Shown here one piece after another: positions 1-60,532 of a stretch of 64,000 nt of DNA. Below the pieces are notes generated by a model, which was given only the letters and a program-made list of their open reading frames with translations, made no database searches and was not told where the DNA came from. Location of the stretch: NCBI GenBank assembly GCA_017465905.1, contig JAFTVE010000013.1:1-64000 (forward strand), in the 5' to 3' direction. The stretch comes from Bacteroidaceae bacterium (GTDB lineage: Bacteria; Bacteroidota; Bacteroidia; Bacteroidales; Bacteroidaceae). The translations under genes were made by a program, and so were the position numbers. Every line of letters begins with the position of its first letter. The stretch's first letter is position 1.

Positions 1-84
1 ATTACGACATACGGAGTGGAGCGGAACAAATACAGCAGCAATCTTCAACGAGTTATTACATTGAAGGAGTTGTTCGGAAATTAG
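1..84 (+). CDS. 3' end of a probable AAA-type ATPase (partial)
   Basis: An open frame enters from the left edge and ends at TAG 82-84, giving 27 residues that read ITTYGVERNKYS...VITLKELFGN. This type of ending (ITTYGV..N.Y...V.L..LF) is one I associate with Bacteroidales AAA-type ATP-binding proteins, but the catalytic part is outside the window, so the function is a guess from the tail alone. A terminator-like hairpin follows directly. Confidence 0.4.
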   Translation: MTTYGVERNKYSSNLQRVITLKELFGN

Positions 85-8825: not shown

Positions 8826-8917
8826 TTTGAGTTTTTTAGTTTTTTAGTTTTTTAGTTTGCCAAATTTAGTTTTTGAGTTTTTTAGTTTTGAGTTTTTGGG
8901 TTTTTAAGTTTGTTGAT
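8826..8917. repeat. TTTTTTAGTTT/GAGTTTTT simple repeat upstream of sdhB
   Basis: Degenerate units of the form TTTTTTAG and TTTTTGAG run for about 90 bp directly before the sdhB start. Read on the minus strand the units are AACTAAAAAACT and AACTCAAAAACT. A short stretch of the same type precedes the start at 38481 (38448-38478), and the direct repeats at 8939-8970 and 9342-9373 are built of the same words in the opposite orientation. Confidence 0.6.
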
Positions 8918-8938
8918 TGAGTCCCGGATGGCACCTTA

Positions 8939-8970
8939 CAAACTCAAAAACTTATAAACTCACAAACTTA
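8939..8970. repeat. Left 32-bp direct repeat of the four-helix-bundle cassette
   Basis: This 32-bp segment, beginning CAAACTCAAAAACTTA and ending ACAAACTTA, matches 9342-9373 at 30 of 32 positions. It includes the stop codon of the gene between the two copies. Confidence 0.75.
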
Positions 8971-9339
8971 TCTATTTCTGTCCAGGCCGTTTTTCCTTCT
9001 ATATATTAAAGACCTTATCATTTTGCTGACTTCGTCATTCTGCTCTCTGGCTTCATCAAAAGACTTGTCGTTGATGTAAGACAGCTCGCGTGAAATGACC
9101 AACTGTGTGTCCAGCTCATTCGAGGAGCCTAACGCCACATAGAGAAATTGAATCAGTTCCTTATCAGAAGACCGTCCATAACCTTCAGCGATATTGGATG
9201 GTATAGAGACCGAGCATCTGCGCATCTGATTGGTCAAGCCGAACCGCTCATCAGCAGGAAAGGTGGCGGTAAGCTCATAGATGGCTTTTGCCAAAGCTAT
9301 GCCCTTTTCCCAAACTGTCAAGTCTCTATAACTGCCCAT
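8968..9339 (-). CDS. Four-helix bundle protein (S23/IVS family)
   Basis: 123 residues, fully helical by eye, with the family hallmarks DLTVWEKGIALAKAIYE, FPADERFGLTNQMRR, VSIPSNIAEG and QFLYVALGSSNEL. Members are encoded in 23S rRNA intervening sequences of Leptospira and Coxiella, and the family is related to the Avd proteins of diversity-generating retroelements; their own function is unclear. Here it interrupts sdhA-sdhB and fits exactly between two 32-bp direct repeats, which suggests a small mobile cassette. No reverse transcriptase, transposase or rRNA is nearby. Confidence 0.85.
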   Translation of the reverse strand: MGSYRDLTVWEKGIALAKAIYELTATFPADERFGLTNQMRRCSVSIPSNIAEGYGRSSDKELIQFLYVALGSSNELDTQLVISRELSYINDKSFDEAREQNDEVSKMIRSLIYRRKNGLDRNR

Positions 9340-9341
9340 TG

Positions 9342-9373
9342 CAAACTCAAAAACTTATTAACTTACAAACTTA
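9342..9373. repeat. Right 32-bp direct repeat of the four-helix-bundle cassette
   Basis: Partner of 8939-8970 (30/32 identical), ending two bases upstream of the cassette gene's ATG. The sdhA stop codon follows at 9378-9380. Confidence 0.75.
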
Positions 9374-9377
9374 AAAC

Positions 9378-11321
9378 TTAAGATTTATAGTTACGTGTCT
9401 GTACCTTGATGTACTCGTAGTTGAGTGGCTCCTTGAGGAGTTCAGGCTTCTTGCCCTCACCCTCGTACTTCCAGCAAGCAACGTATGAGAACTCATCGTC
9501 GCGGCGCAGTGCCTCGCCTTCGGGAGTCTGGTACTCTTCACGGAAGTGGCCACCGCATGACTCCTCGCGGTTGAGCGCGTCGTAAGCCATGAGCTTGCCG
9601 GTCTCGATGAAGTCCCACAGACGGAGTGCCTTCTCCAGCTCGATGTTGAGTGAGTTGGCCTCGCCAGGAATGCGGAGGTCGCTCCAGAATACCTTCTCGA
9701 GGGCTGTGATCTTCTCGATAGCGGTCTTGAGCGATGCATCGGTACGAGCCATACCCACGAAGTCCCACATGATGTGGCCGAGCTCCTTGTGGATAGAGTC
9801 TACAGAGCGTGTACCCTTGATAGCCATGAGCTTGTCGATCTTGGCCTGTACCTCCTTCTCGGCCTGTACGAATTCGGGCAGGTCGGTAGAGAAGCGGGGC
9901 ACCTGGATCTGGTCGCTGAGGTAGTTCTGAATAGTATAGGGGAGCACGAAGTAACCGTCGGCCAAGCCCTGCATGAGGGCAGAGGCACCGAGGCGGTTGG
10001 CACCGTGGTCAGAGAAGTTGGCCTCACCGATGGCAAACAAGCCAGGGATAGAGGTCTGCAACTCGTAGTCAACCCAGATACCACCCATGGTGTAGTGGAT
10101 GGCGGGGAAGATCATCATAGGAGTCTTGTAGGGGTTCTCGTCGGTGATCTCCTCGTACATGTCGAAGAGGTTACCGTAGCGGGCACGTACTACATCCTCG
10201 CCCAGACGCTCGATGGCGTACTTGAAATCGAGGAATACGGCCAGACCCGTATTGTTCACACCGAAGCCGGCATCGCAACGCTCCTTGGCAGCACGTGAAG
10301 CCACGTCGCGGGGAACGAGGTTACCGAAGGCGGGATAACGGCGCTCGAGGTAGAAGTCGCGGTCCTCATCGGGGATGTCGTTGGGCTTCTTGGTACCTGC
10401 CTGCAGGGCCTTGGCATCCTCAAGCTTCTTGGGCACCCAGATGCGGCCGTCGTTACGGAGCGACTCAGACATCAAGGTCAGCTTTGACTGCTTGTCACCG
10501 TGTACGGGGATACAGGTGGGGTGGATCTGTGCGAAGGCGGGGTTAGCGAAGTAAGCACCCTTACGGTAGCACTGCATGGCAGCCGAACCGTTGCTACCCA
10601 TAGCGTTGGTAGAGAGGAAGAAGGTGTTGCCATAACCGCCAGTACCGATAACTACGGCGTGGGCAGAGAAGCGCTCGATCTTACCTGTCACGAGGTTACG
10701 TGCGATGATACCACGTGCACGGCCATCGATGATAACGAGGTCGAGCATCTCGTAGCGGGTGTAGAGCTCTACGTTGCCCAGCTCTACCTGACGGCTCAGT
10801 GCAGAGTAAGCACCGAGGAGGAGCTGCTGACCGGTTTGGCCGCGGGCATAGAACGTACGCGATACCTGAGCACCACCGAATGAACGGTTGTCGAGCAAGC
10901 CACCGTATTCGCGAGCGAAGGGAACACCCTGTGCCACGCACTGGTCGATGATGGCGTTTGACACCTCGGCGAGGCGGTAAACGTTAGCCTCACGTGCACG
11001 GTAGTCACCACCCTTGATGGTATCGTAGAAGAGACGGTATACAGAGTCACCGTCGTTCTGATAGTTCTTAGCAGCATTGATACCGCCCTGTGCAGCGATA
11101 GAGTGTGCACGGCGCGGAGAGTCCTGGATGCAGAAGTTCTTCACCTTGAAGCCCATAGCGCCGAGCGAAGCGGCAGCAGAGGCTCCAGCCAAACCTGTAC
11201 CCACAACGATAACATCGAGCTTACGCTTGTTGGCGGGGTTCACCAACTTCTGATGTGCCTTGTAATTGGTCCATTTTTCTGCCAATGGGCCTTCAGGAAT
11301 TTTTGAATCTATTGTAGCCAT
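9378..11321 (-). CDS. sdhA: Succinate dehydrogenase/fumarate reductase flavoprotein subunit
   Basis: 647 residues. The catalytic subunit interconverts fumarate and succinate. The FAD-binding dinucleotide fold is [14 protein letters not shown] (about 42-55). The covalent flavin histidine lies in [18 protein letters not shown]. The active-site region includes [11 protein letters not shown] and [11 protein letters not shown]. The C-terminal part shows the helical [11 protein letters not shown]-type segment (here [12 protein letters not shown]). It is downstream of sdhC in the same operon. High GC and strongly biased codon use suggest high expression. Confidence 0.97.
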
Positions 11322-28224: not shown

Positions 28225-28309
28225 AATCTTTTCTTTTTTAGTTATACATAAGGTTTATAATCTATCAACTAAAGCAAAAAAGAAACGTGAACTGATATGC
28301 CACGCCTTT

Positions 28310-28501
28310 AATTGGAGGTCCTAGGAAAACCCGAACAAACAGTATGGAGATAACAGTCCACGCGATATACGCGTAGAACCATTACGCCGTCCTTGTTTGT
28401 TCTATTGAAAATTTCCTAGGTTTCCAATTAACAAGAGAGCATAACGCTTCTATTTTACCAAAATGTCTTGACGAATCTTTCGACTCATCGCTGCAAAGGT
28501 A
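28310..28501 (-). promoter_or_regulatory. Promoter and structured leader (leader family E, copy 1)
   Basis: On the minus strand transcription should start after TACCTTTG (28494-28501). The first 49 nt (28453-28501) equal 59712-59760 with one mismatch and encode a 12-residue peptide MSRKIRQDILVK ending in TAG. A long hairpin follows, pairing AATTGGA..CCTAGGAAA (28310 on) and GAACAAAC (28333-28340) with GTTTGTTC (28395-28402), TTTCCTAGG and TTTCCAATT (to 28429). It accounts for much of the 618-bp gap 28225-28842. Confidence 0.65.
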
Positions 28502-28611
28502 GTACAAGGCGAGAGAAAAACCAACAATTACATTGGATTTTTCTGAACCGCAGTGTATATTTTCTATTCTATCCACCCAATAAGTTGCATCTGCATGTTC
28601 AAAAACTTAAA

Positions 28612-28689
28612 TATCCGCGGATACGTAATGAAATATCCATGGATACGTGATGAAATAACCGCGGATACGTAATGGAATATCCGTGGATA
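28612..28689. repeat. 22-bp tandem palindrome array (4 units, core TATCCGCGGATA)
   Basis: Palindromic 12-bp cores start at 28612, 28634, 28656 and 28678, exactly 22 bp apart: TATCCGCGGATA, TATCCATGGATA, TAACCGCGGATA, TATCCGTGGATA. The 10-bp spacers are nearly identical (CGTAATGAAA type). Central substitutions keep or nearly keep the palindrome. It lies in the gap between divergent genes. Confidence 0.85.
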
Positions 28690-28842
28690 TTTAGTTTTTT
28701 CGTTTGCTCCGTCGGAGTTATTCTTTGGTATGAGCGCTACTTTTGAGGCTGTATAACCCGAAAAATATGCCTATTTTCGTTCAGCAATAGTCCTATATAT
28801 CTGATAAAACAGTATCTTTGTAGCTTATTAAGTACTTATATT

Positions 28843-30714
28843 ATGAGGGCATACGATTACTTTGATATTTCTTCGTTCGTAGAAGAGTTGATGGCTAAAA
28901 AGGAATCTGCAGAGATTGAGTTCAAGTCGGCTACTGGTGGGTTCCCTAAATCTTTTTGGGAGACCTATTCTTCTTTTGCCAATACCAATGGAGGGACGAT
29001 AGTGCTTGGCATAAAAGAGAAAGATGGGGAATTCTATGTCGATAAGTTAGCGGATGAGTTAATTGAGAAGTATCAAAAAGAGTTTTGGAGTGGAGTTAAC
29101 AATAAAGATATTATCAACCTAAACTTATTGACAAATGATGATGTCAAGGTTGGTGAATTGGGCAGTCGTAAAGTTCTTTTATTCTATATTCCGCGTGCCA
29201 GTCGTGAACAACGCCCTGTATATCATACACCGAACCCATATAATGGTACATATAAACGTAACCATGAAGGTGACTTCAAGTGTACTGAGCAAGAGATTAG
29301 ACGTATGTATGCCGATGCCAATGTAGCCATATCAGCTGATTCACGTATCTTGGACAATTATACTATTGATGATATAGATGAAGCTTCTCTTAAACAATAC
29401 CGGAGGTTGTTTGACTTGGCTAAACCAGGACATGCGTGGTTGGCCTTAGAAGATATTCCATTGCTGAAGAAATTAGGTGGCTATAAGGTAGATAGGCAGA
29501 CAGGAAAAGAGGGATTTACATTAGCTGGATTATTGATGTTTGGGAAGACAGAGGCTATTATTGATGAAACTTGTGCTCCACATTTCTTTCTTGATTATCG
29601 TGAGCTTGGGGAAGATACTTCGGTGACAAGATGGCTCGATCGTATCTATCCCGATGGGACGTGGGAAGCGAATCTTTTTCAGTTCTATAGGCGTGTCCTT
29701 CCTAAGCTACAAGAGATATTACCTGTTCCTTTCCAATTGGAAGGTGACATGAGGAAAGATGAGACTCCTGCACACATAGCTGTCAGGGAGGCGCTGATAA
29801 ATGCACTGATACATGCTGATTATTCTATAAATGCATCGACTGTAATCACAAGGAATAAGAGTGAATTAGTATTCTCTAATCCTGGTTGTCTGTTGGTATC
29901 AAAACAACAATTCTACGAAGGCGGAGATAGTGTATGTAGGAACCAGTCTCTACAGAAAATGTTTATGATGCTTGGACGGGCAGAAAAAGCAGGTAGTGGC
30001 GCTGATAAGATTATATCGGGTTGGAAAGAATCTAATTGGAAATCACCTAATATCGAAGAGAAGAACAGACCCGACAAGGTGGTTCTGACAATGCCGCTCA
30101 TTTCTATATTAGATGATGATATAAAAAAGCAATTGATAGATATATTTGGCGAACAGATACTTTATATAGAACACAATAAATTACTTACGTTGGCATTAGC
30201 CTTAGCAGAAGGGGTTGTGTCAAATGAGCGCCTAAGGTATACGCTAAATCTACACAAATATGATATAACAAAGATGCTGAAGGAGTTATGCATTGATGGA
30301 TATCTTGTTTCTAATGGTGTTGGAAGAGGTACCACATATCATATTAGTATCCAACAAAACCTTACCAGTTCTGAGGCAAACCTTACCAGTTCTGAGGCAA
30401 ACCTTACCAGCTCTGAGGCAAACCTTACCAGCTCTGAGGCAAACCTTACCAGCTCTGAGGCAAACCTTACTAGTTTGGTTGAACCCAAACAAATAAAAAA
30501 GAAGTGTACTCAGCAGGAGTTGTTTGATATAATAGTGAATTGTGCAGACGAATGGAAATCTTTGGATGAAATCTCTCGTGAGGTTAATCGTAGTGCACAA
30601 TACCTTAAAGGGGCTATTATACATAAGATGGTAGAGCAGGGATTGTTGCAAAGGGAATTCCTAATACCTAATCATCCTGCTCAGAGGTATAAGAGAATAA
30701 TAAGCGAGAAGTAG
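28843..30714 (+). CDS. AlbA_2/Schlafen-type regulator with internal tandem repeat
   Basis: 623 residues. An N-terminal AlbA_2 domain (about 15-140: ESAEIEFKSATGGFP, YSSFANTNGGTIVLGIKE) is followed by the typical DUF/HATPase_c_4 portion (about 330-430: HIAVREALINALIHADYS, VFSNPGCLL, GRAEKAGSGADKIISGW) and C-terminal winged helices. Between the helices lie five copies of NLTSSEA plus a partial sixth, encoded by a 21-bp DNA repeat. Such proteins are usually regulators or defence-linked; no partner is evident. It is AT-rich beside GC-rich uvrC, suggesting transfer. Promoter TATCTTTG is at 28813-28820. Confidence 0.85.
   Translation: MRAYDYFDISSFVEELMAKKESAEIEFKSATGGFPKSFWETYSSFANTNGGTIVLGIKEKDGEFYVDKLADELIEKYQKEFWSGVNNKDIINLNLLTNDDVKVGELGSRKVLLFYIPRASREQRPVYHTPNPYNGTYKRNHEGDFKCTEQEIRRMYADANVAISADSRILDNYTIDDIDEASLKQYRRLFDLAKPGHAWLALEDIPLLKKLGGYKVDRQTGKEGFTLAGLLMFGKTEAIIDETCAPHFFLDYRELGEDTSVTRWLDRIYPDGTWEANLFQFYRRVLPKLQEILPVPFQLEGDMRKDETPAHIAVREALINALIHADYSINASTVITRNKSELVFSNPGCLLVSKQQFYEGGDSVCRNQSLQKMFMMLGRAEKAGSGADKIISGWKESNWKSPNIEEKNRPDKVVLTMPLISILDDDIKKQLIDIFGEQILYIEHNKLLTLALALAEGVVSNERLRYTLNLHKYDITKMLKELCIDGYLVSNGVGRGTTYHISIQQNLTSSEANLTSSEANLTSSEANLTSSEANLTSSEANLTSLVEPKQIKKKCTQQELFDIIVNCADEWKSLDEISREVNRSAQYLKGAIIHKMVEQGLLQREFLIPNHPAQRYKRIISEK
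30358..30474 (+). repeat. 21-bp in-frame tandem repeat in the AlbA_2 gene
   Basis: Five full units of AACCTTACCAGTTCTGAGGC plus one base (30358-30462) and a degenerate sixth. Units 1-2 carry AGTTCT and units 3-5 AGCTCT but are otherwise identical, so copy number changed recently. Each unit adds seven residues without frame change. Confidence 0.9.
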
Positions 30715-41543: not shown

Positions 41544-41621
41544 GAAAAAGTCCCGTTTTTATACGATATTTCAACGGAAAAAGTCCCGATTTTGCATGCT
41601 GTTTTAATAGAAAAAGTCCCG
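41544..41621. repeat. 33-bp tandem array (3 units, core GAAAAAGTCCCG)
   Basis: The core GAAAAAGTCCCG starts at 41544, 41577 and 41610, exactly 33 bp apart, with unrelated 21-bp spacers rich in T. Reading frames across it give repetitive peptides on both strands (EKVP... and GTFS...), which are not credible proteins. It lies in the 534-bp gap 41402-41935; the rest of that gap holds only the GT2 promoter (TATCTTTG, 41905-41912). Confidence 0.7.
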
Positions 41622-45635: not shown

Positions 45636-45763
45636 TTGTCAAGAATTATCATGGGATTGACAAAAAATTATCACCGTGGTGAAAAAAGTTTGTCAACGGT
45701 GCGACAAAAAATTATCACAGGCTTGATAATTTTTTTTCAAACCTATGATAAAGAATTTTTTCA
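45636..45763. repeat. 22-bp tandem array (6 units, core TGACAAAAAATTATCA)
   Basis: 16-bp cores bounded by TGA-type and TCA half-sites start at 45636, 45658, 45680, 45702, 45724 and 45746, exactly 22 bp apart, with 6-bp variable spacers (TGGGAT, CCGTGG, ACGGTG, CAGGCT, AACCTA). The last core is 18 bp. It lies in the centre of the foldback element. Confidence 0.8.
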
Positions 45764-45768
45764 GTTAA

Positions 45769-45834
45769 AAACTGCAGTTTGCAAGGCTCCAAACTGTAGT
45801 TTGGGCAAAGAAAAACTGCAGTTTGGGCAAGGGG
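45769..45834. repeat. 22-bp tandem array (3 units, core AAACTGCAGTTT)
   Basis: Palindromic cores at 45769, 45791 and 45813: AAACTGCAGTTT, AAACTGTAGTTT, AAACTGCAGTTT. The spacing is exactly 22 bp. It follows the previous array almost in register although the core sequence is completely different. The same core occurs in the array at 60439. Confidence 0.85.
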
Positions 45835-60438: not shown

Positions 60439-60532
60439 AAACTGCAGTTTTATCAAGTAAAAACTACAGTTTGGAAGGCTAAAAACTGGAGTTTGGAACT
60501 GAACAAATTGTAGTTTGTAGCTGTACAAACGG
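60439..60532. repeat. 22-bp tandem array (4-5 units, core AAACTGCAGTTT)
   Basis: Cores at 60439, 60461, 60483 and 60505: AAACTGCAGTTT, AAACTACAGTTT, AAACTGGAGTTT, AAATTGTAGTTT, exactly 22 bp apart; a fifth begins AAACGG at 60527. Spacers are 10 bp and variable. It ends about 20 bp before the SDR gene. Confidence 0.85.

What the first reader, a model, noticed from the sequence alone, without database searches (positions are those of the whole stretch)
28612..28689. Helically phased palindrome array: four 12-bp palindromes at exactly 22-bp spacing
Cores TATCCGCGGATA, TATCCATGGATA, TAACCGCGGATA and TATCCGTGGATA begin at 28612, 28634, 28656 and 28678. The spacing is exactly two helical turns, spacers are nearly constant, and changes in the centre mostly preserve the palindrome. 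Arrays with the same period but other cores occur at 45636, 45769 and 60439, and a 33-bp version at 41544. This looks like one class of element with interchangeable core sequences, which I do not recognise as described. Possible roles are multimeric protein binding sites, phased DNA bending, or targets or products of an unknown copying system.
Basis: seen in the sequence. Interest (0 to 1): 0.75.

Follow-up and report, generated by a model that had tools for sequence, protein, structure and literature searches.

The report
Twenty-two-base dyad arrays, IS landing pads
Uncultured gut Bacteroidaceae carry arrays of about four short palindromes spaced exactly 22 bases apart, built from several unrelated palindrome sequences, and one insertion sequence lands beside them in nearly always the same register whatever the palindrome, which suggests that something bound to the array guides it.

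Summary
The array is real and beyond chance. It belongs to a class of arrays in a Bacteroidaceae genus known here only from incomplete assemblies: usually four dyads, exactly 22 bp apart, with at least eight different dyad sequences. Of 42 distinct TATCC-RY-GGATA arrays, 31 have four dyads. The centre is purine-pyrimidine in 169 of 169 cores but self-complementary in only 47%. So the half-sites vary independently, which fits a dimeric DNA-binding protein better than a hairpin.

New finding: an IS3-family insertion sequence targets these arrays. In this genus 20 of 22 close copies of its right end face an array. With two more MAGs added, the first dyad centre is in one register (5-9 mod 22) in 21 of 22. 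This holds for four unrelated dyad families, without a junction motif and with 3-bp target duplications.

Best reading: operator-like dyad lattices on dispersed REP/MITE-like repeats, whose bound protein (unidentified) sets the IS insertion register. IS targeting of palindromic repeats is known (REPs). A fixed register outside the array, and interchangeable dyads, were not found in my literature searches.

The parts
28612..28689 (+). Array of four 12-bp dyads TATCC-RY-GGATA (third is TAACCGCGGATA) at 22-bp spacing, starts 28612, 28634, 28656, 28678; linkers CGTAATGAAA, CGTGATGAAA, CGTAATGGAA
   Evidence: relatives
28562..28611 (.). Left arm shared with relatives (AAAAACTTAAA next to the array); in relative G406 the IS lies just left of ATCTGCATG, at about 28589
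28690..28733 (.). Right arm, 44 bp shared with relatives; homology to G410 stops here
45646..45751 (+). Second kind of array: five 18-bp dyads TTRTCA-N6-TGAYAA-like, 4-bp linkers, period 22 (some half-sites degenerate)
45769..45824 (+). Array of three 12-bp dyads AAACT-NN-AGTTT, period 22; forms a composite with 45646-45751
60439..60516 (+). Array of four AAACT-NN-AGTTT dyads, period 22 (the fourth, AAATTGTAGTTT, degenerate)

Best explanation
Each array is a lattice of operator-like sites. A dyad is two independently varying half-sites (TATCCR in the family given) read by a homodimeric DNA-binding protein. The 22-bp pitch, two helical turns, puts about four dimers on one face of the helix so that they can bind cooperatively. 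The arrays sit on dispersed non-autonomous repeats with conserved arms, of a REP/MITE-like kind. Different dyad sequences represent lineages of elements, presumably with their own binding-protein specificities but the same geometry. The bound lattice, or its regular shape, marks a landing site for an IS3-family insertion sequence. The IS integrates with its right end towards the array, at the outer edge of the next lattice position, most often 29 bp from the first dyad centre. Shown: arrays, pitch, copy number, half-site independence, sequence conservation, IS register, orientation bias and 3-bp target duplication. Inferred: the binding protein, cooperativity, tethering of the IS, and how the arrays spread.
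For: Period: in stretches not chosen for arrays, 5 of 7 three-dyad chains in 464 kb of this genome and 2 of 2 in 385 kb of the genus are at 22 bp; 0 of 6 in 337 kb of other genomes of the order; shuffles gave 1, 1 and 5 chains over all periods. Copy number: 31 of 42 distinct TATCC arrays have four dyads (6 five, two of them by a spurious tail unit; 3 three, 1 six, 1 two). Half-sites: RY centre 169 of 169, left and right letters independent; T to A at position 3 in 29 cores without the matching change (0 compensated). Pairwise differences within five groups of corresponding arrays: half-sites 26/1040, linkers 25/780, centres 17/208 (all transitions), adjacent 20-bp arms 111/1040. IS: 20 of 22 close right ends beside an array against 1 of 21 close left ends, Fisher p 5e-9. 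Register 5-9 mod 22 in 21 of 22 when two further MAGs are added; 8 of 9 in 6-9 among arrays other than TATCC-RY. No junction motif (at most 0.32 bits per position, n=20). 3-bp target duplications: four joined flank pairs match uninterrupted relatives at 97% or more. IS3 family by Pfam rve and NCBIfam NF033516 on relatives of the element.
Against: No binding protein was identified and nothing was measured. The linkers are about as conserved as the half-sites, so the conservation may partly be homogenisation between copies. Several IS cases lie in paralogous arrays with similar arms, so the 22 are not fully independent, and the phase window 5-9 was chosen after seeing the data. G404:C83 is out of register (phase 17). 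G406:C63 and G410:C95 have no array. One array, G000:C13, was missed by the automatic rule and counted by eye; the stricter rule missed three (C13, C26, G406:C50). None of the 8 AAACT arrays of this genome coincides with any of its 10 IS right ends. One left end (G404:C5) does face an array. One array family shows a compensated change (TCTCCGCGGAGA in L223), which a hairpin would also explain. 13 of 31 arrays inspected lie inside short open frames of 80-153 aa kept by a crude ORF caller.
Confidence: 0.55

Rival explanations
1. The arrays are palindromic mobile repeats of the REP/REPIN kind, spread by a single-copy REP-associated tyrosine transposase (RAYT)-like protein acting on single-stranded hairpins; no lattice of dimers is involved.
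For: A RAYT-like gene (Pfam PF01797; NCBIfam NF047646 at 43.4 bits, below its cut-off of 80) occurs in this genome. Relatives of it are in 10 of 19 genomes of the genus, each with at least one match to the TATCC or AAACT pattern (in G408 a single two-mismatch AAACT match), and in 0 of the 6 with neither (Fisher p 0.003). In G408 an ACACAATTGTGT array lies about 100 bp downstream of one.
Against: The co-occurrence is confounded by relatedness. Three genomes with arrays (G401, G403, G410) gave no match. G400 has neither pattern nor gene but carries a TCAYYGCRRTGA array. Eight of nine RAYT-like neighbourhoods examined show no array (two further fetched loci were not examined). Centre and half-site changes are mostly uncompensated. 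The common linkers carry no GTAG or CGTC tag.
Confidence: 0.2
2. The arrays are a minisatellite inside a MITE, as in BrickBuilt of Porphyromonas gingivalis; period and copy number come from replication slippage and the palindromes are incidental.
For: Tandem units; copy number 1, 3 or 4 beside shared arms in relatives; homology between arrays at different loci often stops 22-60 bp outside the array, though some pairs share 100-270 bp.
Against: At least five unrelated dyad families in one genome share exactly 22 bp. Neighbouring units often differ. Half-sites are conserved and the centre is restricted to RY. No period other than 22 is frequent.
Confidence: 0.12
3. The IS transposase itself recognises the array, through DNA shape or a degenerate outer dyad, without any host protein bound there.
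For: For IS1397 and ISKpn1 (IS3 family) target choice for palindromic units is attributed to the transposase (PMC1525189, passage read). Degenerate in-phase dyads lie next to some junctions. OrfA of a related IS carries an HTH domain.
Against: IS ends 94-100% identical in one genome lie beside TATCC, GTACT and TCTTCGCGAAGA arrays, and no strong shared motif lies between junction and dyad.
Confidence: 0.25
4. The arrays work as RNA hairpins, as terminators or processing sites.
For: Mostly outside larger genes, and each dyad could form a short stem; two GTACT arrays are inverted repeats over their whole length (92% and 78%).
Against: Pairing is not maintained in the TATCC family. The arrays lie between divergent and co-directional genes alike. 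No Rfam match in the window at gathering scores.
Confidence: 0.05

Closest known systems
REP/BIME palindromic repeats and the insertion sequences that target them (IS1397, ISKpn1, ISPsy8, IS621; PMC1525189, passages read)
   Same: Dispersed extragenic palindromic units, often clustered; an IS3-family element specific for them, with almost all its copies there
   Different: Those IS are described as inserting within the REP (ISPsy8 always at exactly the same point). Here the junction usually lies outside the array in a fixed register, and the palindromes are of several unrelated sequences, 12-18 bp with a strict 22-bp pitch
BrickBuilt MITE with 23-nt minisatellite, Porphyromonas gingivalis (PMC4596501, abstract and part 1 of one section read)
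   Same: Bacteroidales, intergenic, tandem repeats of similar length flanked by leader and tail arms; 19 copies in strain ATCC 33277
   Different: BrickBuilt has a 23-nt unit and IS5-type terminal inverted repeats, and what I read describes no dyad lattice; here 22 bp, dyads with independent half-sites, several unrelated dyads
Tn7-type target selection (recalled, no call)
   Same: Integration in one orientation at a fixed distance from a protein-bound site
   Different: Here an IS3-family element with orfA/orfB, and many array sequences as targets; tns genes were not searched for
Plasmid iterons (recalled, no call)
   Same: Repeats phased at about 22 bp bound by one protein
   Different: Dispersed in many copies, palindromic; rep genes were not searched for

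Membership tests
REP/BIME repeats | dispersed extragenic palindromic units in many copies | tested here: met
   13 TATCC loci (one, C35, weak) and 8 AAACT loci in this genome; outside larger genes, though 13 of 31 inspected arrays fall in short open frames
REP/BIME repeats | GTAG or CGTC tag at one end of a 20-40 bp palindrome (as in the abstract of PMC3733652, listing) | tested here: not met
   dyads of 12-18 bp; no such tag in the 25 linkers listed for the TATCC family; other families not checked
REP/BIME repeats | cognate RAYT transposase, often flanked by the repeats (recalled) | tested here: inconclusive
   RAYT-like gene in 10 of 19 genomes; 1 of 9 neighbourhoods with an array
REP-targeting insertion sequences | nearly all copies of the IS lie at the repeat | tested here: met
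   20 of 22 close right ends
REP-targeting insertion sequences | insertion at a fixed point inside the repeat | tested here: not met
   junction usually one lattice step outside the first dyad; 1 case (G000:C15) at the edge of the first dyad
MITE (BrickBuilt-like) | terminal inverted repeats shared with a parental IS, and target duplication | tested here: inconclusive
   outer arms partly inverted at the array edge; no array-free site was found, so duplication by the array element itself is untested
IS3 family (the inserting element) | orfA/orfB with rve integrase domain, TG..CA ends, 3-4 bp target duplication | tested here: met
   rve and NF033516 on relatives L207 and L209; ends TGTCTT..AAGACA; 3-bp duplication. 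I saw no complete copy of the own-genome IS; contigs break inside it
CRISPR array | identical repeats with unique spacers beside cas genes | tested here: not met
   variable dyads and recurring linker words; cas genes were not searched for

The most novel reading that the evidence does not exclude
A sequence-independent 22-bp nucleoprotein (or DNA-shape) lattice exists in Bacteroidaceae. Its dyad sequence can be exchanged freely, yet the lattice register itself is read by an IS3-family integrase, which places its end one lattice step outside the array.
Probability: 0.3. Interest if true: 0.8.

Novelty: new variant of a known kind. Interest (0 to 1): 0.62.

Why it matters
Why insertion sequences choose their targets is rarely resolved at base-pair level. 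Here nature has run the experiment: the same element, several unrelated target sequences, one geometry, one insertion register. If tethering to a bound lattice is confirmed, it would show an IS3-family element choosing sites by protein geometry rather than sequence, and it would reveal an unknown chromosomal DNA-binding system in gut Bacteroidaceae. The arrays can also be typed and traced across species.

Tried and rejected
Rfam on the window: no match at gathering scores. On four loci with the IS end: six sub-threshold matches (five to miRNA families, one to a histone stem-loop), none on the IS end. I first took the conserved 140-bp sequence beside the arrays for a structured RNA leader and folded it; translation upstream of one copy showed it to be an IS3-family right end, so I dropped the RNA idea. 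Plasmid and phage collections: no match to the IS end of G410 at E 1e-5. Viral contigs: no exact match to the TATCC-RY or TTRTCA patterns. A terminator role was rejected on gene orientation. Array as decayed IS end was rejected because relatives have the array without the IS. Gene neighbours of TATCC arrays: no Pfam family shared among the nine flanking proteins scanned. Literature searches on tandem palindromes, 22-bp periods, fixed-distance insertion and IS3 in Bacteroidaceae listed no description of this class (listings only); only open-licence PMC papers are held.

Full report
CHECK. No four-dyad chain at any spacing from 13 to 60 bp appeared in 200 shuffles of the window. AAACT-NN-AGTTT arrays at 45769 and 60439 share the period. 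The 45636 array has 18-bp dyads TTRTCA-N6-TGAYAA with 4-bp linkers, again 22 bp, and adjoins the AAACT array at 45769; by eye the same pairing is seen at 13 of 17 AAACT loci printed, orthologues included. The 41544 repeat is a 33-bp direct repeat, not palindromic.

DISTRIBUTION. The window is contig C48 of an incomplete (80%) 2.84-Mb genome. TATCC arrays occur at 13 loci of this genome, the C35 one with only two degenerate dyads, and in 9 of 19 genomes of the genus, own included. AAACT arrays are at 8 loci and in 10 of 19 genomes, own included. In an even draw of 393 genomes of the order only the own genome had the TATCC pattern. A named-genome scan gave 44 stretches. Twelve come from MAGs labelled uncultured Bacteroides, one from a Phocaeicola MAG, one from Marseilla massiliensis, one from an unnamed bacterium, four from cyanobacteria and one from Sporosalibacterium. 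The Bacteroides-labelled ones carry TATCCWWGGATA, also at 22 bp.

A CLASS, NOT ONE REPEAT. In stretches not chosen for arrays, three-dyad chains fell at period 22 in 5 of 7 cases in 464 kb of this genome (the two at 57 have unlike cores by eye), in 2 of 2 in 385 kb of the genus, and in 0 of 6 in 337 kb of other genomes of the order; shuffled sequence gave 1, 1 and 5 chains over all periods. One of the six in the order, L276:13933, looks like a real array, but of period 33. Dyads seen with the 22-bp pitch: TATCCRYGGATA, TATCCWWGGATA, AAACTNNAGTTT, TCACCGCGGTGA, GTACTNNAGTAC, TCTTCGCGAAGA, GAGACTNNAGTCTC, TCAYYGCRRTGA, ACACAATTGTGT and TTRTCA-N6-TGAYAA.

ANATOMY. Among 42 distinct TATCC arrays 31 have four dyads; two of the six counted as five include a spurious tail unit. 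The centre is RY in 169 of 169 cores, with the two letters independent; the commonest other half-site change is uncompensated. The scan tolerated up to three mismatches per core, centre included, so a non-RY centre was allowed but none was seen. Linkers come from a few words, in one orientation within most arrays: CGTAATGAAA 40, CGTGATGAAA 27, TTTAATGAAA 21. In pairwise comparisons within five groups of corresponding arrays (one group is a paralogous pair), half-sites differ at 2.5% of positions, linkers 3.2%, centres 8.2% (all transitions) and the adjacent 20-bp arms 10.7%. The arrays lie between larger genes with no fixed orientation; 13 of 31 inspected fall inside short open frames of 80-153 aa kept by my crude ORF caller, which I do not take for genes but did not test. 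Beside arms like those of the window array, relatives have four dyads (G394, G406, G397), three (G399) and one (G410). In G410 homology stops about 50 bp left and 44 bp right of the array, so it may be another locus; the left arm of G397 also differs.

THE INSERTION SEQUENCE. Several own-genome arrays end within about 200 bp of a contig end in the same sequence. It is the right end of an IS3-family element: a translation upstream of one copy, and relatives with HTH and rve domains, show this. One search listed 33 matches in 9 genomes. I used the 22 close ones (10 own, 7 G406, 1 G394, 1 G410, 3 G404) and set aside 11 weak ones in G402, G405, G407 and G409. Of the 22, 20 face a period-22 array: 19 by the automatic rule and one, G000:C13, from the three-dyad array. 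G406:C63 and G410:C95 do not. The dyads are TATCC-RY (13), GTACT (3), CACCGCGGTG (2), TCTTCGCGAAGA (1) and GAGACT-type (1). Seven of the 13 TATCC loci of this genome have the IS beside them, none of its 8 AAACT loci.

REGISTER. The distance from IS end to first dyad centre, modulo 22, is 7 in 12, 6 in 4, 8 in one, 9 in one and 17 in one; C13 gives 5. The distance itself is exactly 29 bp in 11 of the 19. In G406:C15 the rule picked a degenerate dyad at 8; the first TATCC dyad is at 30. Two Bacteroides-labelled MAGs (genus not determined) have the same IS tail beside TATCCTTGGATA arrays, at 51 and 29 bp, both phase 7. Together 21 of 22 fall in phases 5-9; Rayleigh p is about 3e-8, to be discounted because paralogous arms are not independent and the window of phases was chosen afterwards. 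Outside the TATCC-RY family 8 of 9 are in phases 6-9, but the three GTACT arms are related and two of the nine share the TATCC half-site. The in-register arrays thus cover four unrelated dyad families: TATCC, GTACT, CACCG and CTTCG. The first twelve bases after the junction carry at most 0.32 bits each (n=20). Left ends: one search listed 30 matches, one search examined 28 of them and one, G404:C5, has an array, 28 bp away; among the 21 close copies that is 1 of 21. Eleven same-genome left/right pairings shared 3 bp (other duplication lengths were not tested); 7 of the 11 joined sequences matched an uninterrupted relative, four at 97% or better; one left end, C24, fits two right ends, so one of those two is spurious. 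The IS is therefore a later, separable insertion: the window array has it in G406 but not in G000, G394, G397 or G399.

MECHANISM. Independent half-sites, an RY-restricted but non-pairing centre and a two-turn pitch are what a row of homodimer operators would show. That one IS reads the pitch but not the dyad suggests tethering to bound protein or recognition of a regular DNA shape. I could not identify the binding protein. A REP-transposase-like gene is a candidate for spreading the arrays: present in 10 of 19 genomes, all with at least one TATCC or AAACT match (G408 weakly), and absent from 6 of 6 without either, but confounded by kinship, and only 1 of 9 neighbourhoods examined has an array.

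COMPARISON. IS elements that target palindromic repeats are known: PMC1525189 (passages read) reports such IS in five families, IS3 among them, in its strict cases with all copies at REPs, and ISPsy8 breaking the REP at one exact point. BrickBuilt (PMC4596501; abstract and part 1 of one section read) is a Bacteroidales MITE with 23-nt tandem repeats. In what I read neither has several unrelated dyads with one pitch, nor insertion in a fixed register outside the array. My searches (listings only except for these two papers) showed no description of this.

Noticed in passing
L167, L168, L174, L175, L179, L180, L183, L186, L189; L209:1486-1530: Related IS3-family right ends in G405, G407 and G408 lie beside other short repeats (GTTACA, GTGACA or ACGGACA runs) rather than 22-bp arrays; possibly a second kind of landing site. 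L169 (G409) shows neither.
   Followed up: partly
L276:13933 (G081): A period-33 array with like palindromic cores (around GTTTCAAAAC) in another genome of the order; three helical turns instead of two.
   Followed up: no
L279:1315-2331; G000:C12:83646-84539: Two divergent REP-associated-tyrosine-transposase-like proteins with long C-terminal extensions, conserved across part of the genus.
   Followed up: partly
window 28276-28472: Dispersed element with inverted ends (TCCTAGGAAA...TTTCCTAGG) beside the array, similar copies in several genus genomes.
   Followed up: no
window 8826-8971 and 9342-9380: Repeats of period 8/16 (TTTGAGTTTTTTAGTT) whose AAACTCAAAA words resemble the outer arms of TATCC arrays.
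   Followed up: no
window 30357-30470: 21-bp tandem repeat, 5.4 copies at 98% match, inside the Schlafen/AlbA_2-domain gene 28843-30714.
   Followed up: no
L052, L059, L085: Cyanobacterial loci with two TATCCCCGGATA dyads 22 bp apart and linker AAAACTCTAG; relation to the Bacteroidaceae arrays unknown.
   Followed up: no
L070 and L152, right of the array: TTGAGAATTT repeats begin just beyond the 44-bp right arm in G399 and G410, perhaps the end of another mobile element.
   Followed up: no
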